Part shown: positions 34,583 to 64,000 of the stretch, one piece after another | Layout of the letters: the number at the start of each line of letters is the position of its first letter | Numbering within the stretch: position 1 is the first letter of the stretch | Assembly (NCBI GenBank): GCA_964019135.1 | Contig: OZ025256.1 | Location: 20,281,911 to 20,345,910, forward strand | Direction: 5' to 3' | Length of the DNA: 64,000 bases | From: Arenicola marina | Lineage: Eukaryota; Annelida; Polychaeta; Arenicolidae | The notes under the pieces: model-generated | Told to the model about the DNA's origin: nothing | Seen by the model: the letters and a program-made list of their open reading frames with translations, nothing else | Databases searched by the model: none | Translations under genes and position numbers: made by a program

Positions 34583-34935
34583 GAATTAATATATCTCTGT
34601 GTTTGGCTCTACATGAGCTGGGCGAAATATTGTGTTCGGCCTAATTCATTCGAGCGCGCGAATCTATTCTGCTCAACTTTTACAAGACGTGGGCTTAACT
34701 TCGGCTGTTAAATGCATATCGCCACCTGCACTACAGGCCACATATAGTTTTTGACTTGCTTGTAAATAAAACCTACATGCAGACGAGTAATCAGTTGTCT
34801 CTCTGGCGCTTCCTCTACTTTTTTTCTTCCCTCCTCCCCGCCCCCCTTTAACAGCCGATTGTTTGCCAGCTTTAGCTCAGCCGGTTAGTGGTCTCATAGC
34901 GCCAGACTGCCATACGTGTTGGAGTGTAATCAGTT

Positions 34936-34969
34936 GCCTCTGTGGCCCAATCGGTTAACGCACCGCTGT
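34936..34969 (+). pseudogene. Outermost truncated tRNA-Asn 5' half
   Basis: GCCTCTGTGGCCCAATCGG then TTAACGCACCGCTGT resembles the first 36 bases of tRNA-Asn with several changes and a 2-base gap. It keeps the G at tRNA position 10 that all later truncated copies have changed to T, so it may be closest to the founding insertion. No full tRNA precedes it. Confidence 0.65.
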
Positions 34970-35311
34970 GTCAAGATCCTGTTCAGGTGGCACGAATATA
35001 TCCGGATCCCATTTGGGTTGTGCAACGCGCCGGCCAACTTCAGGTTTTGACGCATACCGAATGAATGATTTCCTCTGCCGGAAACCATTGACGAAAACGT
35101 GGTGGTTGATTAATATATCTCGCTCGTGTGGCCAGAGTGTTCTCACTTAATATCCAGAGCACAAATCAACTGAACAATAAAACCACGTATTAGATGACAT
35201 GTCCCGTTTTGGTCCATCTGCTTGCCTACTGGACTGGGAGGTTGCCATTGTACCAAGATTATACCTGTCGTGCGTGACGAGAGGTTCCTGCCTGTTGAGG
35301 TGTTATCAGTT

Positions 35312-35317
35312 GTGTCT

Positions 35318-35367
<50 letters not shown>

Positions 35368-35385
35368 AAAGCCCACCCAGGGACG
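35312..35385 (+). pseudogene. tRNA-Asn(GUU) copy 1, damaged
   Basis: Leftmost full-length copy. C3 is G, breaking an acceptor pair, and the invariant C56 of the T-loop is A, which also damages the B box. A T5 terminator follows. Probably not functional. Confidence 0.85.
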
Positions 35386-35954
35386 AATGATGTTTTTACT
35401 TGGTCGCCTCGCGTCAAGTAGATCATTCGTGATATAGGATTTAGTCTCTGTCAAGTGTCTTCATAGCGCCAGACTGCCACACGTGTTGAGGTGTAATCAG
35501 TTGTCTCTGTGTCGCAATCGCTTAGCGCGTTCGGCTGTGTCAAGATCCTGCACGAGTGGCACGAATATATCCGGATTCCATGTGGGTAGTGCAATGCGCC
35601 GGCCAACTTCAGGTTTTGAAGCATACCGAAGGAATGATTTCCTCTGCCGGAAACCATTGACTAAAATGTGGTGGTTGATTATACTCGTGTGGGGAGAGTG
35701 TTCTCACTTGATATCCAGAGCACAAATCGACTGATAAATAAATCACGTATCTGATGAAACGTTCCGTTTTGGGCGATCTGCTTGCCTACTGAACTGGGAG
35801 GCTACCATTGTACATACAACCAGTGCAACAGGTTGACCTTTGTGAGAAAGGCGTCGTGAGATTGCTGATCGGAAAATTACACTTCGAGAGGAGCCCGTAG
35901 ATGATACCTGTCGTGCGTGACGAGAGATTCCTGCCTGTTGAGGTGTTATCAGTT

Positions 35955-35962
35955 GTCTCTTC

Positions 35963-35996
<34 letters not shown>

Positions 35997-36028
35997 GAAG
36001 GTTGGTGGTTCAAGCCCACCCAGGGACG
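35955..36028 (+). pseudogene. tRNA-Asn(GUU) copy 2, damaged
   Basis: G7 to T and U8 to C in the acceptor/A-box region, and A42 to G in the anticodon stem. The downstream T-run is only TTT (CTGTTTAC), so Pol III termination would also be weak. Probably a pseudogene. Confidence 0.8.
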
Positions 36029-36600
36029 AAAGATCTGTTTACTTGGTCGCCTCGCGTCAAGTAGCTCGTTCCCGATATAGGATTTCGTATCTGCCAAGTG
36101 TCTTCATAGCGCCAAACTGCCACACGTGTTGAGGTGTAGTCAGTTATCTCTGTGTCACAATCGCTTAGCGCGTTCGGCTGTGTCGAGATCCTGCTCGGGT
36201 GGCACGAATATATCCCGATTTCATGTGGGTTGTGCAATGCGCTGGCCAATTTCAGGTTTTGAAGCATACCGAAGGAATGATTTCCTCTGCCGGAAACGCG
36301 GTGGTTGATTAATATCTCTCCGGCGAGTGGCGAGAATGTTCTCACTTAATATCCAGAGCACAAATCGACTGAACAAAAAAACACGTATGTGATGACCCAT
36401 TCCGTTTTGGTCCGTCTGCTTGCCTACTGAACTGAAAGACCGCCATTGTACCAGCTACCAGTACAACCGGTTGACCTCTGAGAAAGGCGTCGTGCCGCGT
36501 CGTGAGACTGCTGATCGGAAAATTACATTTCGAGAGGAGCCCGTAGATGATACCTGTCGTGCGTGACGAGAGTTTCCTACCTGTTGAGGTGTTAACAGTT

Positions 36601-36606
36601 GTCTCT

Positions 36607-36667
<61 letters not shown>

Positions 36668-36674
36668 AGGGACG
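36601..36674 (+). tRNA. tRNA-Asn(GUU) copy 3, unit A, reference copy
   Basis: 74 bases that fold as a complete cloverleaf. Acceptor GTCTCTG pairs with CAGGGAC (one G-U). The D stem is GCGC/GCGC, the anticodon stem TTCGG/CCGAA with loop CTGTTAA (anticodon GUU, reading AAC/AAU), the variable loop AGGTT, and the T stem GGTGG/CCACC with loop TTCAAGC. The discriminator base is G, as in eukaryotic tRNA-Asn. There is no intron and no encoded CCA. The A box TGGCGCAATCGG and B box GGTTCAAGCCC are the internal Pol III promoter. CTTTTTAC, starting 7 bp downstream, is the terminator. First copy with the consensus shared by 33 of 44 copies. Confidence 0.98.
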
Positions 36675-36829
36675 AATGATCTTTTTACTTGGTCGCCTCG
36701 CGTCAAGTAGCTCGTTCCTGATATAGGAGTGGCCTAAAACACCAACATTCCATTCCTGATATAGGATTAAGTCTCCGTCAAGTGTCCTCTTAGCGCCAGA
36801 CTGCCACACATGTTGAGGTGTAATCAGCG

Positions 36830-36865
36830 GTCTCTGTGTCGCAATCGGTTAGCGCGTTCGGCTGT
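36830..36865 (+). pseudogene. Truncated tRNA-Asn (5' half), repeated in every unit
   Basis: Type example of a second tRNA-related segment. GTCTCTGTGTCGCAATCGG and the following bases match tRNA-Asn positions 1-36 with one change (G10 to T), then switch to unrelated sequence (CAAGATCTTG) inside the anticodon, after G34-U35. The 15-18 bp before it (TTGAGGTGTAATCAG) match the 5' flank of the full gene (TTGAGGTGTTAACAG), so this is a DNA copy of a gene front end and not a retroposed RNA. It lies 229 bp after the tRNA start in A units and 191 bp after it in B units; B copies also have GCTTAG for GGTTAG. Left-edge copies are at 35503-35538 and 36146-36181. The G10 change falls in the A box, and the B box is absent, so transcription by Pol III is unlikely. 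Confidence 0.9.
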
Positions 36866-37276
36866 CAAGATCTTGTTAGGACGGCACGAATATATCCGGA
36901 TTCCATGTGGGTTGTGCAATGCGCCGGCCAACTTAGGTTTAGACGCATACCGAAGGAATGATTTCCTCTGCCGGAAACCACTGACCAAAATGTGGTGGTT
37001 GATTATACTCGTGTGGGGAGTGTTCTCACTTGATATCCAAAGCACAAATCGACTGATAAATGAACCACGTATGTGATGGCACGTTCTGTTTTGGTCCATC
37101 TGCTTGCCTACTGAACTGGGAGGCTGCCATTTTACCAACAACCAGTACAACCGGTTGACCTTTGTGAGAATGGCGTCGTGAGATTGCTGATCGGAAAATT
37201 ACACTTCGAGAGGAGCCCGTAGATGATACCTGTCGTGCGTAACGAGAGATTCCTAGCTGTTGAGGTGTTAACAGTT

Positions 37277-37282
37277 GTCTCT

Positions 37283-37342
<60 letters not shown>

Positions 37343-37350
37343 TAGGGATG
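37277..37350 (+). tRNA. tRNA-Asn(GUU) copy 4, unit B, two acceptor changes
   Basis: The 3' acceptor strand reads TAGGGAT instead of CAGGGAC, turning two G-C pairs into G-U pairs. Folding is still possible but weaker. The unit is 640 bp because one A is missing in its truncated tRNA half (37468-37502). Confidence 0.85.
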
Positions 37351-37916
37351 AAAGATGTTTTTACTTGGTCGCCTCGCGTCAAGTAGATCATTCGTGATAT
37401 AGGATTTAGTCTCTGTCAAGTTTCTTCATAGCGCCAGACTGCCACACGTGTTGAGATGTAATCAGTTGTCTCTGTGTCGCATCGCTTAGCGCGTTCGGCT
37501 GTGTCACGATCCTGTTCGGATGGCACAAATATATCCTGATTCCATTTGGGTTGTGCATTGCGCCGGCCAACTTCAGGTTTTGACGCATACCGAAGGAATG
37601 ATTTCCTCTGCCGGAAACCACGGACTAAAATGTGGTGGTTGATTATACTCGTGTGGGGAGTGTTCTCACTTGATATCCAAAGCACAAATCGACTGATAAA
37701 TAAACCGCGTATGTGATGACACGTTCCGTTTTGGTCCATCTGCTTGCCTACTGAACTGGGAGGCTGCCATTTTACCAACAACCAGTACAACTCGTTGACC
37801 TTGGTGAGAAAGGCGTCGTGAGATTGCTGATCGGAAAATTACACTTCGAGAGGAGCCCGTAGATAATACCTGTCGTGCGTAACGAGAGATTCCTAGCTGT
37901 TGAGGTGTTAACAGTT

Positions 37917-37946
37917 GTCTCTGTGGCGCAATCGGTTAGCGCGTTT

Positions 37947-37983
<37 letters not shown>

Positions 37984-37990
37984 AGGGACG
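37917..37990 (+). tRNA. tRNA-Asn(GUU) copy 5, unit A, one change
   Basis: C29 to T in the anticodon stem gives a U-G pair. The same change occurs in copy 42 (62300). Terminator T5 intact. Confidence 0.92.
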
Positions 37991-38592
37991 AATGATCTTT
38001 TTACTTGGTCGCCTCGCGTCAAGTAGCTCGTTCCTGATATAGGAGTGGCCTAAAACACCAACATTCCATTCCTGATATAGGATTAAGTCTCCGTCAAGTG
38101 TCCTCTTAGCGCCAGACTGCCACACATGTTGAGGTGTAATCAGCGGTCTCTGTGTCGCAATCGGTTAGCGCGTTCGGCTGTCAAGATCTTGTTAGGACGG
38201 CACGAATATATCCGGATTCCATGTGGGTTGTGCAATGCGCCGGCCAACTTAGGTTTAGACGCATACCGAAGGAATGATTTCCTCTGCCGGAAACCACTGA
38301 CCAAAATGTGGTGGTTGATTATACTCGTGTGGGGAGTGTTCACACTTGATATCCAAAGCACAAATCGACTGATAAATGAACCACGTATGTGATGGCACGT
38401 TCTGTTTTGGTCCATCTGCTTGCCTACTGAACTGGGAGGCTGCCATTTTACCAACAACCAGTACAACCGGTTGACCTTTGTGAGAATGGCGTCGTGAGAT
38501 TGCTGATCGGAAAATTACACTTCGAGAGGAGCCCGTAGATGATACCTGTCGTGCGTAACGAGAGATTCCTAGCTGTTGAGGTGTTAACAGTT

Positions 38593-38598
38593 GTCTCT

Positions 38599-38659
<61 letters not shown>

Positions 38660-38666
38660 AGGGACG
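38593..38666 (+). tRNA. tRNA-Asn(GUU) copy 6, unit B
   Basis: Identical to the reference copy. Followed by AAAGATGTTTTTAC, the B-type terminator context. Confidence 0.97.
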
Positions 38667-39233
38667 AAAGATGTTTTTACTTGGTCGCCTCGCGTCAAGT
38701 AGATCATTCGTGATATAGGATTTAGTCTCTGTCAAGTTTCTTCATAGCGCCAGACTGCCACACGTGTTGAGATGTAATCAGTTGTCTCTGTGTCGCAATC
38801 GCTTAGCGCGTTCGGCTGTGTCACGATCCTGTTCGGATGGCACAAATATATCCTGATTCCATTTGGGTAGTGCATTGCGCCGGCCAACTTCAGGTTTTGA
38901 CGCATACCGAAGGAATGATTTCCTCTGCCGGAAACCACGGACTAAAATGTGGTGGTTGATTATACTCGTGTGGGGAGTGTTCTCACTTGATATCCAAAGC
39001 ACAAATCGACTGATAAATAAACCGCGTATGTGATGACACGTTCCGTTTTGGTCCATCTGCTTGCCTACTGAACTGGGAGGCTGCCATTTTACCAACAACC
39101 AGTACAACTCGTTGACCTTGGTGAGAAAGGCGTCGTGAGATTGCTGATCGGAAAATTACACTTCGAGAGGAGCCCGTAGATAATACCTGTCGTGCGTAAC
39201 GAGAGATTCCTAGCTGTTGAGGTGTTAACAGTT

Positions 39234-39239
39234 GTCTCT

Positions 39240-39300
<61 letters not shown>

Positions 39301-39307
39301 AGGGACG
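39234..39307 (+). tRNA. tRNA-Asn(GUU) copy 7, unit A
   Basis: Identical to the reference copy, with the A-type flank AATGATCTTTTTAC. Confidence 0.97.
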
Positions 39308-39909
39308 AATGATCTTTTTACTTGGTCGCCTCGCGTCAAGTAGCTCGTTCCTGATATAGGAGTGGCCTAAAACACCAACATTCCATTCCTGATATAGGAT
39401 TAAGTCTCCGTCAAGTGTCCTCTTAGCGCCAGACTGCCACACATGTTGAGGTGTAATCAGCGGTCTCTGTGTCGCAATCGGTTAGCGCGTTCGGCTGTCA
39501 AGATCTTGTTAGGACGGCACGAATATATCCGGATTCCATGTGGGTTGTGCAATGCGCCGGCCAACTTAGGTTTAGACGCATACCGAAGGAATGATTTCCT
39601 CTGCCGGAAACCACTGACCAAAATGTGGTGGTTGATTATACTCGTGTGGGGAGTGTTCTCACTTGATATCCAAAGCACAAATCGACTGATAAATGAACCA
39701 CGTATGTGATGGCACGTTCTGTTTTGGTCCATCTGCTTGCCTACTGAACTGGGAGGCTGCCATTTTACCAACAACCAGTACAACCGGTTGACCTTTGTGA
39801 GAATGGCGTCGTGAGATTGCTGATCGGAAAATTACACTTCGAGAGGAGCCCGTAGATGATACCTGTCGTGCGTACCGAGAGATTCCTAGCTGTTGAGGTG
39901 TTAACAGTT

Positions 39910-39915
39910 GTCTCT

Positions 39916-39976
<61 letters not shown>

Positions 39977-39983
39977 AGGGACG
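39910..39983 (+). tRNA. tRNA-Asn(GUU) copy 8, unit B
   Basis: Identical to the reference. Leader variant CGTACCGAGAG upstream; the truncated half of this unit reads CTCTGCGTCGC, a variant also seen after copies 14, 20, 29 and 39. Confidence 0.97.
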
Positions 39984-40550
39984 AAAGATGTTTTTACTTG
40001 GTCGCCTCGCGTCAAGTAGATCATTCGTGATATAGGATTTAGTCTCTGTCAAGTTTCTTCATAGCGCCAGACTGCCACACGTGTTGAGATGTAATCAGTT
40101 GTCTCTGCGTCGCAATCGCTTAGCGCGTTCGGCTGTGTCACGATCCTGTTCGGATGGCACAAATATATCCTGATTCCATTTGGGTTGTGCATTGCGCCGG
40201 CCAACTTCAGGTTTTGACGCATACCGAAGGAATGATTTCCTCTGCCGGAAACCACGGACTAAAATGTGGTGGTTGATTATACTCGTGTGGGGAGTGTTCT
40301 CACTTGATATCCAAAGCACAAATCGACTGATAAATAAACCGCGTATGTGATGACACGTTCCGTTTTGGTCCATCGGCTTGCCTACTGAACTGGGAGGCTG
40401 CCATTTTACCAACAACCAGGACAACTCGTTGACCTTGGTGAGAAAGGCGTCGTGAGATTGCTGATCGGAAAATTACACTTCGAGAGGAGCCCGTAGATAA
40501 TACCTGTCGTGCGTAACGAGAGATTCCTAGCTGTTGAGGTGTTAACAGTT

Positions 40551-40556
40551 GTCTCT

Positions 40557-40617
<61 letters not shown>

Positions 40618-40624
40618 AGGGACG
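40551..40624 (+). tRNA. tRNA-Asn(GUU) copy 9, unit A
   Basis: Identical to the reference. The unit before it carries AACCAGGACAACTCG, shared with the unit before copy 15. Confidence 0.97.
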
Positions 40625-41226
40625 AATGATCTTTTTACTTGGTCGCCTCGCGTCAAGTAGCTCGTTCCTGATATAGGAGTGGCCTAAAACACCAACATTC
40701 CATTCCTGATATAGGATTAAGTCTCCGTCAAGTGTCCTCTTAGCGCCAGACTGCCACACATGTTGAGGTGTAATCAGCGGTCTCTGTGTCGCAATCGGTT
40801 AGCGCGTTCGGCTGTCAAGATCTTGTTAGGACGGCACGAATATATCCGGATTCCATGTGGGTTGTGCAATGCGCCGGCCAACTTAGGTTTAGACGCATAC
40901 CGAAGGAATGATTTCCTCTGCCGGAAACCACTGACCAAAATGTGGTGGTTGATTATACTCGTGTGGGGAGTGTTCTCACTTGATATCCAAAGCACAAATC
41001 GACTGATAAATGAACCACGTATGTGATGGCACGTTCCGTTTTGGTCCATCTGCTTGCCTACTGAACTGGGAGGCTGCCATTTTACCAACAACCAGTACAA
41101 CCGGTTGACCTTTGTGAGAATGGCGTCGTGAGATTGCTGATCGGAAAATTACACTTCGAGAGGAGCCCGTAGATGATACCTGTCGTGCGTAACGAAAGAT
41201 TCCTAGCTGTTGAGGTGTTAACAGTT

Positions 41227-41232
41227 GTCTCT

Positions 41233-41293
<61 letters not shown>

Positions 41294-41300
41294 AGGGACG
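41227..41300 (+). tRNA. tRNA-Asn(GUU) copy 10, unit B
   Basis: Identical to the reference. Leader variant AACGAAAGATTCC is shared with copy 16, 3951 bp away; GCGCTGGCC in its spacer is shared with units of copies 16 and 25. Confidence 0.97.
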
Positions 41301-41867
41301 AAAGATGTTTTTACTTGGTCGCCTCGCGTCAAGTAGATCATTCGTGATATAGGATTTAGTCTCTGTCAAGTTTCTTCATAGCGCCAGACTGCCACACGTG
41401 TTGAGATGTAATCAGTTGTCTCTGTGTCGCAATCGCTTAGCGCGTTCGGCTGTGTCACGATCCTGTTCGGATGGCACAAATATATCCTGATTCCATTTGG
41501 GTTGTGCATTGCGCTGGCCAACTTCAGGTTTTGACGCATACCGAAGGAATGATTTCCTCTGCCGGAAACCACGGACTAAAATGTGGTGGTTGATTATACT
41601 CGTGTGGGGAGTGTTCTCACTTGATATCCAAAACACAAATCGACTGATAAATAAACCGCGTATGTGATGACACGTTCCGTTTTGGTCCATCTGCTTACCT
41701 ACTGAACTGGGAGGCTGCCATTTTACCAACAACCAGTACAACTCGTTGACCTTGGTGAGAAAGGCGTCGTGAGATTGCTGATCGGAAAATTACACTTCGA
41801 GAGGAGCCCGTAGATAATACCTGTCGTGCGTAACGAGAGATTCCTAGCTGTTGAGGTGTTAAAAGTT

Positions 41868-41873
41868 GTCTCT

Positions 41874-41934
<61 letters not shown>

Positions 41935-41941
41935 AGGGACG
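41868..41941 (+). tRNA. tRNA-Asn(GUU) copy 11, unit A
   Basis: Identical to the reference. Immediate leader GTTAAAAGTT differs from the usual GTTAACAGTT. Confidence 0.97.
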
Positions 41942-42543
41942 AATGATCTTTTTACTTGGTCGCCTCGCGTCAAGTAGCTCGTTCCTGATATAGGAGTGGC
42001 CTAAAACACCAACATTCCATTCCTGATATAGGATTAAGTCTCCGTCAAGTGTCCTCTTAGCGCCAGACTGCCACACATGTTGAGGTGTAATCAGCGGTCT
42101 CTGTGTCGCAATCGGTTAGCGCGTTCGGCTGTCAAGATCTTGTTAGGACGGCACGAATATATCCCGATTCCATGTGGGTTGTGCAATGCGCCGGCCAACT
42201 TAGGTTTAGACGCATACCGAAGGAATGATTTCCTTTGCCGGAAACCACTGACCAAAATGTGGTGGTTGATTATACTCGTGTGGGGAGTGCTCTCACTTGA
42301 TATCCAAAGCACAAATCGACTGATAAATGAACCACGTATGTGATGGCACGTTCCGTTTTGGTCCATCTGCTTACCTACTGAACTGGGAGGCTGCCATTTT
42401 ACCAACAACCAGTACAACCGGTTGACCTTTGTGAGAATGGCGTCGTGAGATTGCTGATCGGAAAATTACACTTCGAGAGGAGCCCGTAGATGATACCTGT
42501 CGTGCGTAACGAGAGATTCCTAGCTGTTGAGGTGTTAACAGTT

Positions 42544-42549
42544 GTCTCT

Positions 42550-42610
<61 letters not shown>

Positions 42611-42617
42611 AGGGACG
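42544..42617 (+). tRNA. tRNA-Asn(GUU) copy 12, unit B
   Basis: Identical to the reference, with consensus flanks. Confidence 0.97.
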
Positions 42618-43184
42618 AAAGATGTTTTTACTTGGTCGCCTCGCGTCAAGTAGATCATTCGTGATATAGGATTTAGTCTCTGTCAAGTTTCTTCATAGCG
42701 CCAGACTGCCACACGTGTTGAGATGTAATCAGTTGTCTCTGTGTCGCAATCGCTTAGCGCGTTCGGCTGTGTCACGATCCTGTTCGGATGGCACAAATAT
42801 ATCCTGATTCCATTTGGGTTGTGCATTGCGCCGGCCAACTTCAGGTTTTGACGCATACCGAAGGAATGATTTCCTCTGCCGGAAACCACGGACTAAAATG
42901 TGGTGGTTGATTATACTCGTGTGGGGAGTGTTCTCACTTGATATCCAAAGCACAAATCGACTGATAAATAAACCGCGTATGTGATGACACGTTCCGTTTT
43001 GGTCCATCTGCTTGCCTACTGAACTGGGAGGCTGCCATTTTACCAACAACCAGTACAACTCGTTGACCTTGGTGAGAAAGGCGTCGTGAGATTGCTGATC
43101 GGAAAATTACACTTCGAGAGGAGCCCGTAGATAATACCTGTCGTGCGTAACGAGATATTCCTAGCTGTTGAGGTGTTAACAGTT

Positions 43185-43190
43185 GTCTCT

Positions 43191-43251
<61 letters not shown>

Positions 43252-43258
43252 AGGGACG
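43185..43258 (+). tRNA. tRNA-Asn(GUU) copy 13, unit A
   Basis: Identical to the reference. Leader CGAGATATTCC and spacer GCGCCGGACTGCC are private markers shared with copies 19 and 28. Confidence 0.97.
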
Positions 43259-43860
43259 AATGATCTTTTTACTTGGTCGCCTCGCGTCAAGTAGCTCGTT
43301 CCTGATATAGGAGTGGCCTAAAACACCAACATTCCATTCCTGATATAGGATTAAGTCTCCGTCAAGTGTCCTCTTAGCGCCGGACTGCCACACATGTTGA
43401 GGTGTAATCAGCGGTCTCTGTGTCGCAATCGGTTAGCGCGTTCGGCTGTCAAGATCTTGTTAGGACGGCACGAATATATCCGGATTCCATGTGGGTTGTG
43501 CAATGCGCCGGCCAACTTAGGTTTAGACGCATACCGAAGGAATGATTTCCTCTGCCGGAAACCACTGACCAAAATGTGGTGGTTGATTATACTCGTGTGG
43601 GGAGTGTTCTCACTTGATATCCAAAGCACAAATCGACTGATAAATGAACCACGTATGTGATGGCACGTTCCGTTTTGGTCCATCTGCTTGCCTACTGAAC
43701 TGGGAGGGTGCCATTTTACCAACAACCAGTACAACCGGTTGACCTTTGTGAGAATGGCGTCGTGAGATTGCTGATCGGAAAATTATACTTCGAGAGGAGC
43801 CCGTAGATGATACCTGTCGTGCGTAACGAGAGATTCCTAGCTGTTGAGGTGTTAACAGTT

Positions 43861-43866
43861 GTCTCT

Positions 43867-43922
<56 letters not shown>

Positions 43923-43934
43923 GACCCAGGGACG
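43861..43934 (+). tRNA. tRNA-Asn(GUU) copy 14, unit B, T-stem change
   Basis: T-stem 3' strand CGACC instead of CCACC, giving one G-G mismatch and altering the end of the B-box region. Copy 20 has the same change 3951 bp away, so the variant was duplicated. Confidence 0.85.
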
Positions 43935-44501: not shown

Positions 44502-44507
44502 GTCTCT

Positions 44508-54402: not shown

Positions 54403-54463
<61 letters not shown>

Positions 54464-54470: not shown

Positions 54471-55072
54471 AATGATCTTTTTACTTGGTCGCCTCGCGTC
54501 AAGTAGCTCGTTCCTGATATAGGAGTGGCCTAAAACACCAACATTCCATTCCTGATATAGGATTAAGTCTCCGTCAAGTGTCCTCTTAGCGCCAGACTGC
54601 CACACATGTTGAGGTGTAATCAGCGGTCTCTGTGTCGCAATCGGTTAGCGCGTTCGGCTGTCAAGATCTTGTTAGGACGGCACGAATATATCCGGATTCC
54701 ATGTGGGTTTTGCAATGCGCCGGCCAACTTAGGTTTAGACGCATACCGAAGGAATGATTTCCTCTGCCGGAAACCACTGACCAAAATGTGGTGGTTGATT
54801 ATACTCGTGTGGGGAGTGTTCTCACTTGATATCCAAAGCACAAATCGACTGATAAATGAACCACGTATGTGATGGCACGTTCCGTTTTGGTCCATCTGCT
54901 TGCCTACTGAACTGGGAGGCTGCCATTTTACCAACAACCAGTACAACCGGTTGACCTTTGTGAGAATGGCGTCGTGAGATTGCTGATCGGAAAATTACAC
55001 TTCGAGAGGAGCCCGTAGATGATACCTGTCGTGCGTAACGAGAGATTCCTAGCTGTTGAGGTGTTAACAGTT

Positions 55073-55079
55073 GTCTCTC

Positions 55080-55139
<60 letters not shown>

Positions 55140-55146
55140 AGGGACG
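55073..55146 (+). tRNA. tRNA-Asn(GUU) copy 31, unit B, one acceptor change
   Basis: G7 to C breaks the last acceptor pair (C-C). Downstream flank has a private GATGATTCG. Function uncertain. Confidence 0.85.
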
Positions 55147-55713
55147 AAAGATGTTTTTACTTGGTCGCCTCGCGTCAAGTAGATGATTCGTGATATAGGA
55201 TTTAGTCTCTGTCAAGTTTCTTCATAGCGCCAGACTGCCACACGTGTTGAGATGTAATCAGTTGTCTCTGTGTCGCAATCGCTTAGCGCGTTCGGCTGTG
55301 TCACGATCCTGTTCGGATGGCACAAATATATCCTGATTCCATTTGGGTTGTGCATTGCGCCGGCCAACTTCAGGTTTTGACGCATACCGAAGGAATGATT
55401 TCCTCTGCCGGAAACCACGGACTAAAATGTGGTGGTTGATTATACTCGTGTGGGGAGTGTTCTCACTTGATATCCAAAGCACAAATCGACTGATAAATAA
55501 ACCGCGTATGTGATGACACGTTCCGTTTTGGTCCATCTGCTTGCCTACTGAACTGGGAGGCTGCCATTTTACCAACAACCAGTACAACTCGTTGACCTTG
55601 GTGAGAAAGGCGTCGTGAGATTGCTGATCGGAAAATTACACTTTGAGAGGAGCCCGTAGATAATACCTGTCGGGCGTAACGAGAGATTCCTAGCTGTTGA
55701 GGTGTTAACAGTT

Positions 55714-55719
55714 GTCTCT

Positions 55720-55780
<61 letters not shown>

Positions 55781-55787
55781 AGGGACG
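55714..55787 (+). tRNA. tRNA-Asn(GUU) copy 32, unit A
   Basis: Identical to the reference; leader has private GTCGGGCGTAACG. Confidence 0.97.
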
Positions 55788-56389
55788 AATGATCTTTTTA
55801 CTTGGTCGCCTCGCGTCAAGTAGCTCGTTCCTGATATAGGAGTGGCCTAAAACACCAACATTCCATTCCTGATATAGGATTAAGTCTCCGTCAAGTGTCC
55901 TCTTAGCGCCAGACTGCCACACATGTTGAGGTGTAATCAGCGGTCTCTGTGTCGCAATCGGTTAGCGCGTTCGGCTGTCAAGATCTTGTTAGGACGGCAC
56001 GAATATATCCGGATTCCATGTGGGTTGTGCAATGCGCCGGCCAACTTAGGTTTAGACGCATACCGAAGGAATGATTTCCTCTGCCGGAAACCACTGACCA
56101 AAATGTGGTGGTTGATTATACTCGTGTGGGGAGTGTTCTCACTTGATATCCAAAGCACAAATCGACTGATAAATGAACCACGTATGTGATGGAACGTTCC
56201 GTTTTGGTCCATCTGCTTGCCTACTGAACTGGGAGGCTGCCATTTTACCAACAACCAGTACAACCGGTTGACCTTTGTGAGAATGGCGTCGTGAGATTGC
56301 TGATCGGAAAATTACACTTCGAGAGGAGCCCGTAGATGATACCTGTCGTGCGTAACGAGAGATTCCTAGCTGTTGAGGTGTTAACAGTT

Positions 56390-56395
56390 GTCTCT

Positions 56396-56456
<61 letters not shown>

Positions 56457-56463
56457 AGGGACG
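56390..56463 (+). tRNA. tRNA-Asn(GUU) copy 33, unit B
   Basis: Identical to the reference. Spacer CATAGCACCAGAC is private; CCAAAACACAAATCG is shared with copies 35 and 37. Confidence 0.97.
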
Positions 56464-57030
56464 AAAGATGTTTTTACTTGGTCGCCTCGCGTCAAGTAGA
56501 TCATTCGTGATATAGGATTTAGTCTCTGTCAAGTTTCTTCATAGCACCAGACTGCCACACGTGTTGAGATGTAATCAGTTGTCTCTGTGTCGCAATCGCT
56601 TAGCGCGTTCGGCTGTGTCACGATCCTGTTCGGATGGCACAAATATATCCTGATTCCATTTGGGTTGTGCATTGCGCCGGCCAACTTCAGGTTTTGACGC
56701 ATACCGAAGGAATGATTTCCTCTGCCGGAAACCACGGACTAAAATGTGGTGGTTGATTATACTCGTGTGGGGAGTGTTCTCACTTGATATCCAAAACACA
56801 AATCGACTGATAAATAAACCGCGTATGTGATGACACGTTCCGTTTTGGTCCATCTGCTTACCTACTGAACTGGGAGGCTGCCATTTTACCAACAACCAGT
56901 ACAACTCGTTGACCTTGGTGAGAAAGGCGTCGTGAGATTGCTGATCGGAAAATTACACTTCGAGAGGAGCCCGTAGATAATACCTGTCGTGCGTAACGAG
57001 AGATTCCTAGCTGTTGAGGTGTTAACAGTT

Positions 57031-57036
57031 GTCTCT

Positions 57037-57097
<61 letters not shown>

Positions 57098-57104
57098 AGG
57101 GACG
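57031..57104 (+). tRNA. tRNA-Asn(GUU) copy 34, unit A
   Basis: Identical to the reference. Spacer GATGGAACGTTCC is shared with the units of copies 32 and 36, showing a recent local 1317-bp expansion. Confidence 0.97.
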
Positions 57105-57706
57105 AATGATCTTTTTACTTGGTCGCCTCGCGTCAAGTAGCTCGTTCCTGATATAGGAGTGGCCTAAAACACCAACATTCCATTCCTGATATAGGATTAA
57201 GTCTCCGTCAAGTGTCCTCTTAGCGCCAGACTGCCACACATGTTGAGGTGTAATCAGCGGTCTCTGTGTCGCAATCGGTTAGCGCGTTCGGCTGTCAAGA
57301 TCTTGTTAGGACGGCACGAATATATCCGGATTCCATGTGGGTTGTGCAATGCGCCGGCCAACTTAGGTTTAGACGCATACCGAAGGAATGATTTCCTCTG
57401 CCGGAAACCACTGACCAAAATGTGGTGGTTGATTATACTCGTGTGGGGAGTGTTCTCACTTGATATCCAAAGCACAAATCGACTGATAAATGAACCACGT
57501 ATGTGATGGAACGTTCCGTTTTGGTCCATCTGCTTGCCTACTGAACTGGGAGGCTGCCATTTTACCAACAACCAGTACAACCGGTTGACCTTTGTGAGAA
57601 TGGCGTCGTGAGATTGCTGATCGGAAAATTACACTTCGAGAGGAGCCCGTAGATGATACCTGTCGTGCGTAACGAGAGATTCCTAGCTGTTGAGGTGTTA
57701 ACAGTT

Positions 57707-57712
57707 GTCTCT

Positions 57713-57773
<61 letters not shown>

Positions 57774-57780
57774 AGGGACG
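57707..57780 (+). tRNA. tRNA-Asn(GUU) copy 35, unit B
   Basis: Identical to the reference. Spacer TTTTACAAACAACC is shared only with copy 37. Confidence 0.97.
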
Positions 57781-58347
57781 AAAGATGTTTTTACTTGGTC
57801 GCCTCGCGTCAAGTAGATCATTCGTGATATAGGATTTAGTCTCTGTCAAGTTTCTTCATAGCGCCAGACTGCCACACGTGTTGAGATGTAATCAGTTGTC
57901 TCTGTGTCGCAATCGCTTAGCGCGTTCGGCTGTGTCACGATCCTGTTCGGATGGCACAAATATATCCTGATTCCATTTGGGTTGTGCATTGCGCCGGCCA
58001 ACTTCAGGTTTTGACGCATACCGAAGGAATGATTTCCTCTGCCGGAAACCACGGACTAAAATGTGGTGGTTGATTATACTCGTGTGGGGAGTGTTCTCAC
58101 TTGATATCCAAAACACAAATCGACTGATAAATAAACCGCGTATGTGATGACACGTTCCGTTTTGGTCCATCTGCTTACCTACTGAACTGGGAGGCTGCCA
58201 TTTTACAAACAACCAGTACAACTCGTTGACCTTGGTGAGAAAGGCGTCGTGAGATTGCTGATCGGAAAATTACACTTCGAGAGGAGCCCGTAGATAATAC
58301 CTGTCGTGCGTAACGAGCGATTCCTAGCTGTTGAGGTGTTAACAGTT

Positions 58348-58353
58348 GTCTCT

Positions 58354-58414
<61 letters not shown>

Positions 58415-58421
58415 AGGGACG
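58348..58421 (+). tRNA. tRNA-Asn(GUU) copy 36, unit A
   Basis: Identical to the reference; leader has private CGAGCGATTCC. Confidence 0.97.
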
Positions 58422-59023
58422 AATGATCTTTTTACTTGGTCGCCTCGCGTCAAGTAGCTCGTTCCTGATATAGGAGTGGCCTAAAACACCAACATTCCAT
58501 TCCTGATATAGGATTAAGTCTCCGTCAAGTGTCCTCTTAGCGCCAGACTGCCACACATGTTGAGGTGTAATCAGCGGTCTCTGTGTCGCAATCGGTTAGC
58601 GCGTTCGGCTGTCAAGATCTTGTTAGGACGGCACGAATATATCCGGATTCCATGTGGGTTGTGCAATGCGCCGGCCAACTTAGGTTTAGACGCATACCGA
58701 AGGAATGATTTCCTCTGCCGGAAACCACTGACCAAAATGTGGTGGTTGATTATACTCGTGTGGGGAGTGTTCTCACTTGATATCCAAAGCACAAATCGAC
58801 TGATAAATGAACCACGTATGTGATGGAACGTTCCGTTTTGGTCCATCTGCTTGCCTACTGAACTGGGAGGCTGCCATTTTACCAACAACCAGTACAACCG
58901 GTTGACCTTTGTGAGAATGGCGTCGTGAGATTGCTGATCGGAAAATTACACTTCGAGAGGAGCCCGTAGATGATACCTGTCGTGCGTAACGAGAGATTCC
59001 TAGCTGTTGAGGTTTTAACAGTT

Positions 59024-59029
59024 GTCTCT

Positions 59030-59090
<61 letters not shown>

Positions 59091-59097
59091 AGGGACG
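59024..59097 (+). tRNA. tRNA-Asn(GUU) copy 37, unit B
   Basis: Identical to the reference; leader GGTTTTAACAG and downstream TTTTTACGTGG are private. Confidence 0.97.
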
Positions 59098-59664
59098 AAA
59101 GATGTTTTTACGTGGTCGCCTCGCGTCAAGTAGATCATTCGTGATATAGGATTTAGTCTCTGTCAAGTTTCTTCATAGCGCCAGACTGCCACACGTGTTG
59201 AGATGTAATCAGTTGTCTCTGTGTCGCAATCGCTTAGCGCGTTCGGCTGTGTCACGATCCTGTTCGGATGGCACAAATATATCCTGATTCCATTTGGGTT
59301 GTGCATTGCGCCGGCCAACTTCAGGTTTTGACGCATACCGAAGGAATGATTTCCTCTGCCGGAAACCACGGACTAAAATGTGGTGGTTGATTATACTCGT
59401 GTGGGGAGTGTTCTCACTTGATATCCAAAACACAAATCGACTGATAAATAAACCGCGTATGTGATGACACGTTCCGTTTTGGTCCATCTGCTTACCTACT
59501 GAACTGGGAGGCTGCCATTTTACAAACAACCAGTACAACTCGTTGACCTTGGTGAGAAAGGCGTCGTGAGATTGCTGATCGGAAAATTACACTTCGAGAG
59601 GAGCCCGTAGATAATACCTGTCGTGCGTAACGAGAGATTCCTAGCTGTTGAGGTGTTAACAGTT

Positions 59665-59670
59665 GTCTCT

Positions 59671-59731
<61 letters not shown>

Positions 59732-59738
59732 AGGGACG
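59665..59738 (+). tRNA. tRNA-Asn(GUU) copy 38, unit A, weakened terminator
   Basis: Gene identical to the reference, but the T5 terminator has become CTCTTTAC (three T). The unit is 677 bp because of an extra C in ACACCCAACATTCC. Confidence 0.95.
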
Positions 59739-60341
59739 AATGATCTCTTTACTTGGTCGCCTCGCGTCAAGTAGCTCGTTCCTGATATAGGAGTGGCCTA
59801 AAACACCCAACATTCCATTCCTGATATAGGATTAAGTCTCCGTCAAGTGTCCTCTTAGCGCCAGACTGCCACACATGTTGAGGTGTAATCAGCGGTCTCT
59901 GTGTCGCAATCGGTTAGCGCGTTCGGCTGTCAAGATCTTGTTAGGACGGCACGAATATATCCGGATTCCATGTGGGTTGTGCAATGCGCCGGCCAACTTA
60001 GGTTTAGACGCATACCGAAGGAATGATTTCCTTTGCCGGAAACCACTGACCAAAATGTGGTGGTTGATTATACTCGTGTGGGGAGTGTTCTCACTTGATA
60101 TCCAAAGCACAAATCGACTGATAAATGAATCACGTATGTGATGGCACGTTCCGTTTTGGTCCATCTGCTTGCCTACTGAACTGGGAGGCTGCCATTTTAC
60201 CAACAACCAGTACAACCGGTTGACCTTTGTGAGAATGGCGTCGTGAGATTGCTGATCGGAAAATTACACTTCGAGAGGAGCCCGTAGATGATACCTGTCG
60301 TGCGTAACGAGAGATTCCTAGCTGTTGAGGTGTTAACAGTT

Positions 60342-60366
60342 GTCTCTGTGGCGCAATCGGTTAGCA

Positions 60367-60408
<42 letters not shown>

Positions 60409-60415
60409 AGGGACG
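60342..60415 (+). tRNA. tRNA-Asn(GUU) copy 39, unit B, D-stem change
   Basis: D-stem 3' strand GCAC instead of GCGC, one C-A mismatch. Boxes A and B intact. Confidence 0.87.
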
Positions 60416-60982
60416 AAAGATGTTTTTACTTGGTCGCCTCGCGTCAAGTAGATCATTCGTGATATAGGATTTAGTCTCTGTCAAGTTTCTTCATAGCGCC
60501 AGACTGCCACACGTGTTGAGATGTAATCAGTTGTCTCTGCGTCGCAATCGCTTAGCGCGTTCGGCTGTGTCACGATCCTGTTCGGATGGCACAAATATAT
60601 CCTGATTCCATTTGGGTTGTGCATTGCGCCGGCCAACTTCAGGTTTTGACGCATACCGAAGGAATGATTTCCTCTGCCGGAAACCACGGACTAAAATGTG
60701 GTGGTTGATTATACTCGTGTGGGGAGTGTTCTCACTTGATATCCAAAGCACAAATCGACTGATAAATAAACCGCGTATGTGATGACACGTTCCGTTTTGG
60801 TCCATCTGCTTGCCTACTGAACTGGGAGGCTGCCATTTTACCAACAACCAGTACAACTCGTTGACTTTGGTGAGAAAGGCGTCGTGAGATTGCTGATCGG
60901 AAAATTACACTTCGAGAGGAGCCCGTAGATAATACCTGTCGTGCGTAACGAGAGATTCCTAGCTGTTGAGCTGTTAACAGTT

Positions 60983-60988
60983 GTCTCT

Positions 60989-61049
<61 letters not shown>

Positions 61050-61056
61050 AGGGACG
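60983..61056 (+). tRNA. tRNA-Asn(GUU) copy 40, unit A
   Basis: Identical to the reference; leader has private GAGCTGTTAACAG. Confidence 0.97.
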
Positions 61057-61658
61057 AATGATCTTTTTACTTGGTCGCCTCGCGTCAAGTAGCTCGTTCC
61101 TGATATAGGAGTGGCCTAAAACACCAACATTCCATTCCTGATATAGGATTAAGTCTCCGTCAAGTGTCTTCTTAGCGCCAGACTGCCACACATGTTGAGG
61201 TGTAATCAGCGGTCTCTGTGTCGCAATCGGTTAGCGCGTTCGGCTGTCAAGATCTTGTTAGGACGGCACGAATATATCCGGATTCCATGTGGGTTGTGCA
61301 ATGCGCCGGCCAACTTAGGTTTAGACGCATACCGAAGGAATGATTTCCTCTGCCGGAAACCACTGACCAAAATGTGGTGGTTGATTATACTCGTGTGGGG
61401 AGTGTTCTCACTTGATATCCAAAGCACAAATCGACTGATAAATGAACCACGTATGTGATGGCACGTTCTGTTTTGGTCCATCTGCTTGCCTACTGAACTG
61501 GGAGGCTGCCATTTTACCAACAACCAGTACAACCGGTTGACCTTTGTGAGAATGGCGTCGTGAGATTGCTGATCGGAAAATTACACTTCGAGAGGAGCCC
61601 GTAGATGATACCTGTCGTGCGTAACGAGAGATTCCTAGCTGTTGAGGTATTAACAGTT

Positions 61659-61683
61659 GTCTCTGTGGCGCAATCGGTTAGCC

Positions 61684-61725
<42 letters not shown>

Positions 61726-61732
61726 AGGAACG
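61659..61732 (+). pseudogene. tRNA-Asn(GUU) copy 41, unit B, two stem mismatches
   Basis: D-stem GCCC for GCGC, and acceptor CAGGAAC for CAGGGAC, each adding a mismatch. Leader GGTATTAACAG. Likely impaired. Confidence 0.7.
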
Positions 61733-62299
61733 AAAGATGTTTTTACTTGGTCGCCTCGCGTCAAGTAGATCATTCGTGATATAGGATTTAGTCTCTGTCA
61801 AGTTTCTTCATAGCGCCAGACTGCCACACGTGTTGAGATGTAATCAGTTGTCTCTGTGTCGCAATCGCTTAGCGCGTTCGGCTGTGTCACGATCCTGTTC
61901 GGATGGCACAAATATATCCTGATTCCATTTGGGTTGTGCATTGCGCCGGCCAACTTCAGGTTTTGACGCATACCGAAGGAATGATTTCCTCTGCCGGAAA
62001 CCACGGACTAAAATGTGGTGGTTGATTATACTCGTGTGGGGAGTGTTCTCACTTGATATCCAAAGCACAAATCGACTGATAAATAAACCGCGTATGTGAT
62101 GACACGTTCCGTTTTGGTCCATCTGCTTGCCTACTGAACTGGGAGGCTGCCATTTTACCAACAACCAGTACAACTCGTTGACCTTGGTGAGAAAGGCGTC
62201 GTGAGATTGCTGATCGGAAAATTACACTTCGAGAGGAGCCCGTAGATAATACCTGTCGTGCGTAACGAGAGATTCCTAGCTGTTGAGGTGTTAACAGTT

Positions 62300-62329
62300 G
62301 TCTCTGTGGCGCAATCGGTTAGCGCGTTT

Positions 62330-62366
<37 letters not shown>

Positions 62367-62373
62367 AGGGACG
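62300..62373 (+). tRNA. tRNA-Asn(GUU) copy 42, unit A, one change
   Basis: C29 to T (TTTGG) as in copy 5, leaving a U-G pair. The truncated half in this unit has TTAGTGCG. Confidence 0.92.
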
Positions 62374-62975
62374 AATGATCTTTTTACTTGGTCGCCTCGC
62401 GTCAAGTAGCTCGTTCCTGATATAGGAGTGGCCTAAAACACCAACATTCCATTCCTGATATAGGATTAAGTCTCCGTCAAGTGTCCTCTTAGCGCCAGAC
62501 TGCCACACATGTTGAGGTGTAATCAGCGGTCTCTGTGTCGCAATCGGTTAGTGCGTTCGGCTGTCAAGATCTTGTTAGGACGGCACGAATATATCCGGAT
62601 TCCATGTGGGTTGTGCAATGCGCCGGCCAACTTAGGTTTAGACGCATACCGAAGGAATGATTTCCTCTGCCGGAAACCACTGACCAAAATGTGGTGGTTG
62701 ATTATACTCGTGTGGGGAGTGTTCTCACTTGATATCCAAAGCACAAATCGACTGATAAATGAACCACGTATGTGATGGCACGTTCTGTTTTGGTCCATCT
62801 GCTTGCCTACTGAACTGGGAGGCTGCCATTTTACCAACAACCAGTACAACCGGTTGACCTTTGTGAGAATGGCGTCGTGAGATTGCTGATCGGAAAATTA
62901 CACTTCGAGAGGAGCCCGTAGATGATACCTGTCGTGCGTAACGAGAGATTCCTAGCTGTTGAGGTGTTAACAGTT

Positions 62976-62981
62976 GCCTAT

Positions 62982-63042
<61 letters not shown>

Positions 63043-63049
63043 AGGGACG
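62976..63049 (+). pseudogene. tRNA-Asn(GUU) copy 43, unit B, acceptor damage
   Basis: Acceptor 5' strand GCCTATG for GTCTCTG gives two mismatches (positions 2 and 5). Probably impaired. Confidence 0.7.
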
Positions 63050-63616
63050 AAAGATGTTTTTACTTGGTCGCCTCGCGTCAAGTAGATCATTCGTGATATA
63101 GGATTTAGTCTCTGTCAAGTTTCTTCATAGCGCCAGACTGCCACACGTGTTGAGATGTAATCAGTTGTCTCTGTGTCGCAATCGCTTAGCGCGTTCGGCT
63201 GTGTCACGATCCTGTTCGGATGGCACAAATATATCCTGATTCCATTTGGGTTGTGCATTGCGCCGGCCAACTTCAGGTTTTGACGCATACCGAAGGAATG
63301 ATTTCCTCTGCCGGAAACCACGGACTAAAATGTGGTGGTTGATTATACTCGTGTGGGGAGTGTTCTCACTTGATATCCAAAGCACAAATCGACTGATCAA
63401 TAAACCGCGTATGTGATGACACGTTCCGTTTTGGTCCATCTGCTTGCCTACTGAACTGGGAGGCTGCCATTTTACCAACAACCAGTACAACTCGTTGACC
63501 TTGGTGAGAAAGGCGTCGTGAGATTGCTGATCGGAAAATTACACTTCGAGAGGAGCCCGTAGATAATACCTGTCGTGCGTAACGAGAGATTCCTAGCTGT
63601 TGAGGTGTTAACAGTT

Positions 63617-63622
63617 GTCTCT

Positions 63623-63683
<61 letters not shown>

Positions 63684-63690
63684 AGGGACG
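63617..63690 (+). tRNA. tRNA-Asn(GUU) copy 44, unit A, last in window
   Basis: Identical to the reference. Its unit is cut by the window end at 64000, so the array continues to the right. Confidence 0.97.
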
Positions 63691-64000
63691 AATGATCTTT
63701 TTACTTGGTCGCCTCGCGTCAAGTAGCTCGTTCCTGATATAGGAGTGGCCTAAAACACCAACATTCCATTCCTGATATAGGATTAAGTCTCCGTCAAGTG
63801 TCCTCTTAGCGCCAGACTGCCACACATGTTGAGGTGTAACCAGCGGTCTCTGTGTCGCAATCGGTTAGCGCGTTCGGCTGTCAAGATCTTGTTAGGACGG
63901 CACGAATATATCCGGATTCCATGTGGGTTGTGCAATGCGCCGGCCAACTTAGGTTTAGACGCATACCGAAGGAATGATTTCCTCTGCCGGAAACCACTGA

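What the first reader, a model, noticed from the sequence alone, without database searches (positions are those of the whole stretch)
34890..64000. Very high-copy, single-isotype tRNA-Asn array
44 full-length tRNA-Asn(GUU) genes lie head to tail in 29 kb, 33 of them identical, and the array leaves the window. Tandem tRNA repeats are known (for example the Xenopus tDNA repeat and Entamoeba tRNA arrays), but a long array of one isoacceptor on a 676/641-bp unit is unusual. Possible roles (inference): extra asparagine tRNA supply, a Pol III-rich insulator or nuclear-position element, or a selfish satellite that carries a Pol III promoter.
Basis: partly seen in the sequence, partly recalled or inferred. 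Interest (0 to 1): 0.82.

Follow-up and report, generated by a model that had tools for sequence, protein, structure and literature searches.

The report
Giant tandem tRNA-Asn array in annelid
One chromosome of an annelid worm carries a 113-kb block of 173 back-to-back copies of its ordinary asparagine tRNA gene; it is real and large, but tandem arrays hold most copies of the other tRNA genes that were checked in this genome, and similar single-tRNA arrays are already known in other eukaryotes.

Summary
The window holds 44 head-to-tail tRNA-Asn(GUU) genes, 33 identical, all above the Rfam cut-off. The array continues to 173 regularly spaced genes over 113 kb, plus one solitary copy beyond; 144 of these 174 are identical. 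Its body repeats a 1317-bp dimer: A (641 bp) and B (676 bp), B being an A unit with a truncated SINE-like tail flanked by a 14-bp direct repeat. The host is an annelid.

The tRNA equals that of a separate mixed cluster with unrelated flanks, so it is the species' ordinary tRNA-Asn. The array is not exceptional here: most iMet, Ser(GCU), Lys and Glu copies found also lie in tandem arrays. Single copies show no detectable constraint.

Best reading: a redundant Pol III gene array, amplified and homogenised by unequal exchange, supplying ordinary tRNA-Asn; transcription is untested. Closest published parallel: a Phytophthora infestans tRNA-Cys array, 271 copies of 513 nt. New member of a known kind.

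The parts
34352..35310 (+). Decayed left edge of the array: unit spacer remnants (73-89% identity) with a degenerate tRNA 5' half near 34917-34961 and no intact tRNA
   Evidence: blastn of unit consensus against the left flank
33766..33821 (-). Small inverted remnant of the unit spacer outside the array (56 bp, 86%)
35311..63691 (+). 44 tRNA-Asn(GTT) genes, head to tail; first part of the 113-kb array (scaffold C9:20317221-20430559)
38592..39232 (+). Example A unit (641 bp): tRNA at 38592-38667, T5 terminator just downstream, half-tRNA, spacer
39233..39908 (+). Example B unit (676 bp): as A, with a 38-bp insertion (net length difference 35 bp)
38783..38819 (+). Truncated tRNA-Asn 5' half inside the unit (unit positions 192-228 of A; 95% identical to tRNA positions 1-37), preceded by an 18-nt copy of the tRNA's 5' flank (83%); remnant of an internal duplication
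   Evidence: self-comparison of the A consensus
36729..36752 (+). 5'-truncated SINE-like tail inserted in a B unit; a 21-nt probe from this tail has 2933 places in the genome, the B units of this array included
36715..36728 (+). Left copy of the 14-bp direct repeat TTCCTGATATAGGA flanking the tail (read as a target-site duplication); right copy at 36753-36766; A units have one copy with one base different
   Evidence: read directly

Best explanation
A tandem array of ordinary RNA polymerase III tRNA-Asn(GUU) genes in an annelid nuclear genome. Shown: 174 copies; the tRNA body is the same as in an unrelated mixed tRNA cluster; a T4-5 terminator in most copies; A/B units that differ by a tail insertion with direct repeats; large-block duplications; decayed edges; no detectable constraint on single copies; tandem organisation of most copies of the other isotypes probed. 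Inferred: each intact unit can be transcribed from its internal A and B boxes; the array grows, shrinks and homogenises by unequal exchange of dimers and of blocks of about 18 dimers; selection sees at most the total supply of tRNA-Asn, so any one copy is expendable; an unknown fraction of copies is silent. The odds given for this and the rivals overlap, because a partly silent array or a stage-specific one is a sub-case.
For: 174 copies, 144 identical. 9 of 11 ARAGORN-called tRNA-Asn genes sampled in the C3 mixed cluster have exactly the same 74-nt body, with unrelated flanks. 213 tRNA-Asn cores in the genome, of which the 174 here must be part since none differs at more than 3 positions. T run of 4 or more within 25 nt downstream in 156 of 174. 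Block exchange: at lag 36 units, 23 of 136 comparisons are exactly identical, with a longest run of 6 against a maximum of 3 in 20 shuffles. Edges 73-89% identical, interior about 99%. B = A plus a dispersed tail with direct repeats. Variable sites 14/152 in tRNA and 113/1165 in spacer, Fisher p = 1.0; 14 of 22 distinct tRNA changes break a stem pair against 104 of 222 possible. Other isotypes: Lys 33 of 33 probe hits on C19, mostly in three clusters; Glu 82 of 97 in one C12 array (counted by hand from its listing); Ser-GCT 47 of 53 hits with up to 2 mismatches in the C3 cluster or the C17 array; iMet 211 hits, every listed place on C11; Cys-Arg repeats on C3.
Against: No expression, Pol III occupancy or methylation data. 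tRNA variants are at lower frequency (at most 5 of 83 A units, 3 of 84 B units) than some spacer variants (up to 38 of 83), and A and B differ at 0 of 76 tRNA sites against 33 of 562 spacer sites (binomial P = 0.010), so weak constraint on the tRNA is not excluded; but the flanks next to the tRNA are also little diverged, so this is not a clean test. 18 of 174 copies lack a run of 4 T within 25 nt. Arrays are not universal: 6 of 53 Ser-GCT hits (C2, C3 at 43.5 Mb, C9, C12) and 4 of 97 Glu hits (C6, C10, C11, C13) lie outside them, and the RF00005 search also listed single places on C2 and C12 and two on C7. Copy number rests on the assembly.
Confidence: 0.77

Rival explanations
1. Selfish or neutral satellite: the array is a satellite that happens to carry a tRNA gene; most copies are silent and the worm's tRNA-Asn comes mainly from the C3 cluster.
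For: No detectable constraint per copy: equal density of variable sites and no shortage of stem-breaking changes. 39 other tRNA-Asn cores exist outside the 174 (minus). Satellite-like edge decay and block exchange. Arabidopsis tRNA clusters are reported as methylated and repressed (cited in PMC11700998, passages seen).
Against: The consensus tRNA remains identical to the independent C3 gene despite unrelated flanks; most copies of the other isotypes probed are also in arrays, so much of the probed tRNA gene supply lies in arrays; every listed hit of the spacer probe is in this array, so the unit is not seen to spread.
Confidence: 0.3
2. Stage-specific reserve: the large Asn and iMet arrays are used in oocytes or embryos and the mixed clusters in somatic cells, as recalled for Xenopus 5S and tDNA repeats.
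For: Two genomic sets of tRNA-Asn with the same body and different flanks; large arrays for Asn and iMet.
Against: No expression data; the Xenopus parallel is recalled, not tested; the sizes of other arrays or clusters (18, 33, 82 copies) do not suggest a special class.
Confidence: 0.12
3. Chromatin insulator or nuclear-organisation element.
For: A human tRNA tandem repeat at 1q23.3 binds CTCF (PMC4041453, abstract). C9 and C3 arrays lie near the scaffold middle (0.47 and 0.49).
Against: Other arrays or clusters lie at 0.15 to 0.85 of their scaffolds; no second element above its cut-off found in the unit by Rfam; no binding motif tested; no spacer sequence shared with the samples of other arrays apart from the SINE-like tail (the C19 and C4 samples were only 300 bp).
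Confidence: 0.07
4. Assembly artefact that inflated the copy number.
For: Long near-identical repeats are hard to assemble; no reads were available.
Against: Units carry distinct variants (47 distinct A and 47 distinct B sequences among 86 each), the array has two unique decayed edges on one scaffold, and the arrangement recurs for other isotypes.
Confidence: 0.05

Closest known systems
Phytophthora infestans single-isotype tRNA arrays (PMC9584435; passages seen)
   Same: [quoted passage not shown] all 271 tRNA-Cys(GCA) on one chromosome as a 513-nt repeat; about two-thirds of tRNA families on a single chromosome; near-identical monomeric units with variants often near one edge; growth by unequal crossing-over proposed; assembly copy numbers concordant with read depth there
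   Different: Oomycete rather than animal; the Asn array here is an A/B dimer with a SINE-like tail insertion and an internal half-tRNA
Entamoeba tRNA gene arrays (PMC2652664; abstract, passages and Function section seen)
   Same: Tandem arrays as the usual arrangement of tRNA genes; concerted evolution proposed; function of high copy number unknown; two Asn-Lys arrays in E. histolytica that differ completely in intergenic sequence
   Different: Entamoeba units hold up to 5 tRNA genes, with short tandem repeats between genes in E. histolytica and E. dispar; no clear evidence of pseudogene copies there, whereas 23 of 174 here break a stem pair
Arabidopsis tRNA-Pro (25-27) and maize tRNA-Ile (28) tandem clusters (PMC11700998; passages seen)
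   Same: Single-isotype tandem clusters in a nuclear genome
   Different: Several-fold fewer copies
Large tDNA clusters of Nematostella, zebrafish and stickleback (PMC2888827; abstract, passages and section 6 seen)
   Same: Animal genomes with most tRNA genes clustered; clusters of 50 or more members in Nematostella and teleosts
   Different: Nematostella and zebrafish adjacent pairs are mostly of different isotypes; here the C9 array is one isotype
Human 1q23.3 tRNA tandem repeat (PMC4041453; abstract and section list seen)
   Same: Tandem tRNA repeat in an animal, copy number variable, evidence of instability
   Different: 7.3-kb unit, 9-43 units, CTCF-binding

Membership tests
Functional tRNA gene (Rfam RF00005) | Score above the family cut-off with full cloverleaf | tested here: met
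   44 of 44 window copies at 50.1-68.4 bits against 29; copies beyond the window were tested with ARAGORN only
Functional tRNA gene (Rfam RF00005) | Consensus body equal to tRNA-Asn genes in an independent context | tested here: met
   9 of 11 ARAGORN-called C3 tRNA-Asn genes identical over 74 nt, 2 with one change; flanks unrelated; at least three further C3 matches over tRNA positions 6-75 only (98.6%) were not called by ARAGORN
Functional tRNA gene (Rfam RF00005) | Pol III terminator downstream | tested here: met
   T run of 4 or more within 25 nt in 156 of 174 copies; 18 lack it
Functional tRNA gene (Rfam RF00005) | Transcribed, processed and charged | not testable with these tools
   needs RNA data
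Tandem tRNA gene array under concerted evolution | Head-to-tail near-identical units of one locus | tested here: met
   173 regularly spaced genes, one strand; spacer probe 173 hits, every listed place on C9
Tandem tRNA gene array under concerted evolution | Homogenised interior with decayed edges and block exchange | tested here: met
Tandem tRNA gene array under concerted evolution | Arrayed arrangement of several isotypes in the genome | tested here: met
   Lys, Ser-GCT, iMet, Glu-Asp, Cys-Arg, with some copies outside arrays
tRNA-derived SINE | Dispersed copies with shared tail and target-site duplications | tested here: not met
   The spacer probe has 173 hits, all on one strand and every listed place in this array; the tail in B units is a separate insertion
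Satellite DNA without gene function | No selection on the contained gene sequence | tested here: inconclusive
   No constraint per copy within the array, but the consensus equals the independent C3 gene
Insulator or CTCF-type boundary repeat | Bound architectural protein or contact-domain boundary | not testable with these tools
   needs ChIP or Hi-C

The most novel reading that the evidence does not exclude
In this annelid, tRNA genes are organised like rDNA: isotypes or small isotype groups have their own homogenised arrays on particular chromosomes, single copies are under no measurable selection, and dosage is set by how many units are open rather than by how many genes exist, with the Asn and iMet arrays as stage-specific reserves.
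Probability: 0.15. Interest if true: 0.62.

Novelty: new member of a known kind. Interest (0 to 1): 0.36.

Why it matters
It is a cleanly assembled animal case of a single-isotype tRNA array, with enough copies to measure constraint, homogenisation and block exchange inside one locus and with an independent copy set of the same tRNA for comparison. It shows that an animal genome can keep several tRNA groups in rDNA-like arrays, which bears on how tRNA gene dosage, silencing and copy-number variation work. It does not by itself reveal a new mechanism.

Tried and rejected
Searching for a second gene in the unit: Rfam at permissive threshold on 1.5 kb gave only the tRNAs and one match below its family's gathering score, JPX_1, 16.1 bits, E 4.9. 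SINE-type spread of the unit: rejected by the spacer count. A common spacer element across arrays: the only shared piece found in the samples was the SINE-like tail. Centromere-like position: C9, C3 and C17 arrays lie at 0.43-0.49 of their scaffolds but others at 0.15-0.85, so dropped. Common period near 650-668 bp across arrays: C9 641/676, C17 666 and C3 about 1335 suggested it, but others are 514/647, 1028, 1962 and 2486, so dropped as coincidence. The metazoan T-loop form of this core (GGTTCGANYCC, recalled) has no match in the genome, so the array is not a deviant version of a standard gene here. The family search with RF00005 in the whole genome scored only 63 of 81695 candidates, so a total tRNA count was not obtained. 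Species was not identified; the phylum rests on mtDNA gene order (recalled as the Lumbricus-type annelid order; gene names partly read by eye from translations) and on erythrocruorin linker hits (PF16915, recalled as an annelid family). A taxonomy look-up found nothing, and a COX1 comparison with solved structures did not help to place the species. Literature searches with annelid or polychaete terms (the last gave 0 papers) and general ones: no listed title or shown abstract start reports such an array in an annelid, but only the open-licence library was searched and the listed annelid genome papers (for example on Enchytraeus, Hirudo, Lamellibrachia and Riftia) were not opened. Passages of PMC3341644 had nothing on tandem tRNA arrays.
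Full report
Observation. ARAGORN reports 44 tRNA-Asn(GTT) genes on + between 35311 and 63691 and Rfam RF00005 confirms 44 of 44 well above threshold. 33 of 44 are identical over 76 nt. The window is scaffold C9:20281911-20345910 of an 867-Mb assembly in 762 contigs. I fetched the next 100 kb. The array continues without a break to region position 148649 (window numbering; C9:20430559): 173 regularly spaced genes over 113,339 bp, then one solitary tRNA-Asn 3.6 kb further with different flanks, and tRNA-Ala, -Ser and -Ala on the other strand. Of all 174 tRNA-Asn, 144 are identical and none differs at more than 3 positions. The 10-kb pieces fetched at C9:20271911-20281910 and C9:20445911-20455910 have no tRNA genes by ARAGORN.

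Anatomy. The 172 complete units between successive regular genes are 86 of A type (641 bp in 83 of them) and 86 of B type (676 bp in 71, 677 in 11, 672 in 4), alternating with a few A-A and B-B neighbours. A and B consensus spacers differ at 33 of 562 aligned sites plus 41 gap columns, and at 0 of 76 tRNA sites. The main indel is a 38-bp insertion in B: a 24-bp tail piece plus one extra copy of a 14-bp direct repeat, TTCCTGATATAGGA, that A has once with one base different. A 21-nt probe from this tail has 2933 places genome-wide with up to 1 mismatch, the B units included. In the right flank (L018 near 5739) a similar tail ends a longer element with a tRNA-like B box, as expected of a tRNA-derived SINE (the reading as a SINE is mine). 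So B is most simply an A unit that took a 5'-truncated SINE-like insertion, after which the A-B pair was amplified together. The A consensus also holds a truncated 5' half of the tRNA gene (37 nt, 95% identity) with 18 nt of matching 5' flank, about 115 bp downstream of the full gene, and the B consensus holds the same half: a remnant of an internal DNA duplication. Both array edges are decayed: left homology 73-89% from about 34352, right about 87-88% over 565 bp. Within a type, units differ by about 0.8-1.1% and the distance rises only slightly with separation. At a lag of 36 units, 23 of 136 comparisons are exactly identical with a longest run of 6; 20 shuffles never exceeded 3. I read this as block-wise unequal exchange.

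Is the tRNA functional? The body is a canonical tRNA-Asn. The same 74-nt body is found in 9 of 11 ARAGORN-called tRNA-Asn genes sampled from a mixed Asn-Ser(GCU)-Ser(AGA) cluster on C3, with no similarity in the flanks; the other 2 have one change each. At least three further C3 matches cover only tRNA positions 6-75 at 98.6% and were not called by ARAGORN. 156 of 174 array copies have a T run of 4 or more within 25 nt downstream; 17 of the 18 lacking it share one T-to-C variant and one has another change. So the array encodes the species' ordinary tRNA-Asn with the usual Pol III signals. But single copies look expendable: variable sites are as dense in the tRNA (14 of 152, pooled over 83 A and 84 B units, with 3 A and 2 B edge units left out) as in the spacer (113 of 1165), Fisher p = 1.0. 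Of 22 distinct tRNA changes in all 174 copies, 14 break a stem pair, against 104 of 222 possible changes (p = 0.14). Results the other way: tRNA variants stay at lower frequency than some spacer variants, and the 0 of 76 A-B difference has P = 0.010 under the spacer rate, though the flanks next to the tRNA are also little diverged.

Genome context. A core probe with up to 3 mismatches counts 213 tRNA-Asn cores (194 forward, 19 reverse); 31 exact ones listed lie on C3:29.74-29.95 Mb, and 8 beyond these and the 174 on C9 were not placed because the listing is capped. A spacer probe has 173 hits, all forward, with every listed place on C9 (capped list). Other isotypes: Lys 33 of 33 hits on C19, mostly in three clusters. 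Ser-GCT 76 hits, of which 53 have at most 2 mismatches and the other 23, at 3 mismatches, carry the AGA anticodon; of the 53, 29 lie in the C3 cluster, 18 form a C17 array with a mostly 666-bp period and 6 lie elsewhere. iMet 211 hits (15 forward, 196 reverse), every listed place on C11, with a 1.2-kb sample holding three tRNA-Met and no other tRNA. Glu 97 hits, 82 in one C12 array of about 1028-bp period whose sampled unit also has tRNA-Asp, 11 on C4 and 4 elsewhere. On C3 also Cys and Arg genes at a period of about 1336 bp, with a third gene that ARAGORN leaves unnamed (anticodon gtag) and that I read as Tyr with an intron. So tandem arrays, some single-isotype, hold most copies of the tRNA genes probed here, and the Asn array is a large example rather than a singular event.

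Organism. Contig C762 is a 15,942-bp mitochondrial genome; the order of its tRNA and protein genes on one strand matches what I recall as the Lumbricus-type annelid order (two ARAGORN calls on the other strand, and extra Ser calls, were set aside as spurious). The nuclear genome has 4 erythrocruorin linker matches on C14 (PF16915, best E 1.6e-20; 0 of 14 prokaryote controls). I call it an annelid; the species is unknown.

Mechanism. I commit to a redundant Pol III gene array maintained by unequal exchange. Shown: structure, homogeneity, block duplication, insertion history, lack of detectable per-copy constraint, identity with an independent gene. Inferred: transcription, the fraction of active units, and selection on total dosage only. 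A mostly silent satellite with the C3 cluster doing the work is the main rival and needs RNA or chromatin data to separate.

Known relatives. Phytophthora infestans has the closest parallel, including 271 tRNA-Cys genes as a 513-nt repeat on one chromosome, in a genome whose tRNA copy numbers were found concordant with read depth (PMC9584435, passages). Entamoeba arrays (PMC2652664, abstract, passages and one section), plant single-isotype clusters (PMC11700998, passages), large animal clusters (PMC2888827, abstract, passages and one section) and the human 1q23.3 repeat (PMC4041453, abstract) are further members. The Xenopus tDNA repeat is recalled only. In the listings of my ten paper searches I saw no report of such an array in an annelid, but the library is partial and the listed annelid genome papers were not opened. 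Verdict: real, larger than first seen, a new member of a known kind; interest moderate.

Noticed in passing
C11:11937964-12062552 (L058): Large tRNA-iMet array, 211 genome-wide probe hits with every listed place here, spacing about 514/647 bp.
   Followed up: partly
C17:16565504-16578870 (L057): tRNA-Ser(GCU) array, 18 copies, mostly 666-bp period; the one 788-bp interval carries the same SINE-like tail as C9 B units.
   Followed up: partly
C3:29739926-30002768 (L001-L008, L054-L056): About 260-kb stretch of mixed tRNA repeats: Asn-Ser-Ser on both strands, then Cys-Arg and a Tyr-like gene with a roughly 1336-bp period.
   Followed up: partly
C12:6256151-6354144 (L059): Glu-Asp tRNA array, 82 Glu copies, period about 1028 bp, with a further Asp-like copy in the sampled unit that ARAGORN did not call.
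   Followed up: partly
window 630-3258: 14-bp satellite, about 188 copies, which leaves several frames open for hundreds of codons.
   Followed up: no
window 16055-22129: Two adjoining minisatellites (34 and 36 bp) about 6 kb long, with strong GC skew.
   Followed up: no
window 11900-14671 (-): Fragments of a LINE-like element in several frames; one piece of three searched matches a reverse transcriptase domain (RVT_1).
   Followed up: partly
window 32773-33225 (+): Open frame matching a TauD/TfdA-family dioxygenase, likely an exon of a gene just left of the array.
   Followed up: no
L018:5739-5759 and surroundings: SINE-like element with a tRNA-like B box and a tail like that found in B units.
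   Followed up: partly
units of the array, e.g. 38783-38819: The half-tRNA in the unit ends inside the anticodon loop, where 5' tRNA halves are recalled to end; it carries matching 5' flank, so a DNA duplication is the simpler reading.
   Followed up: partly
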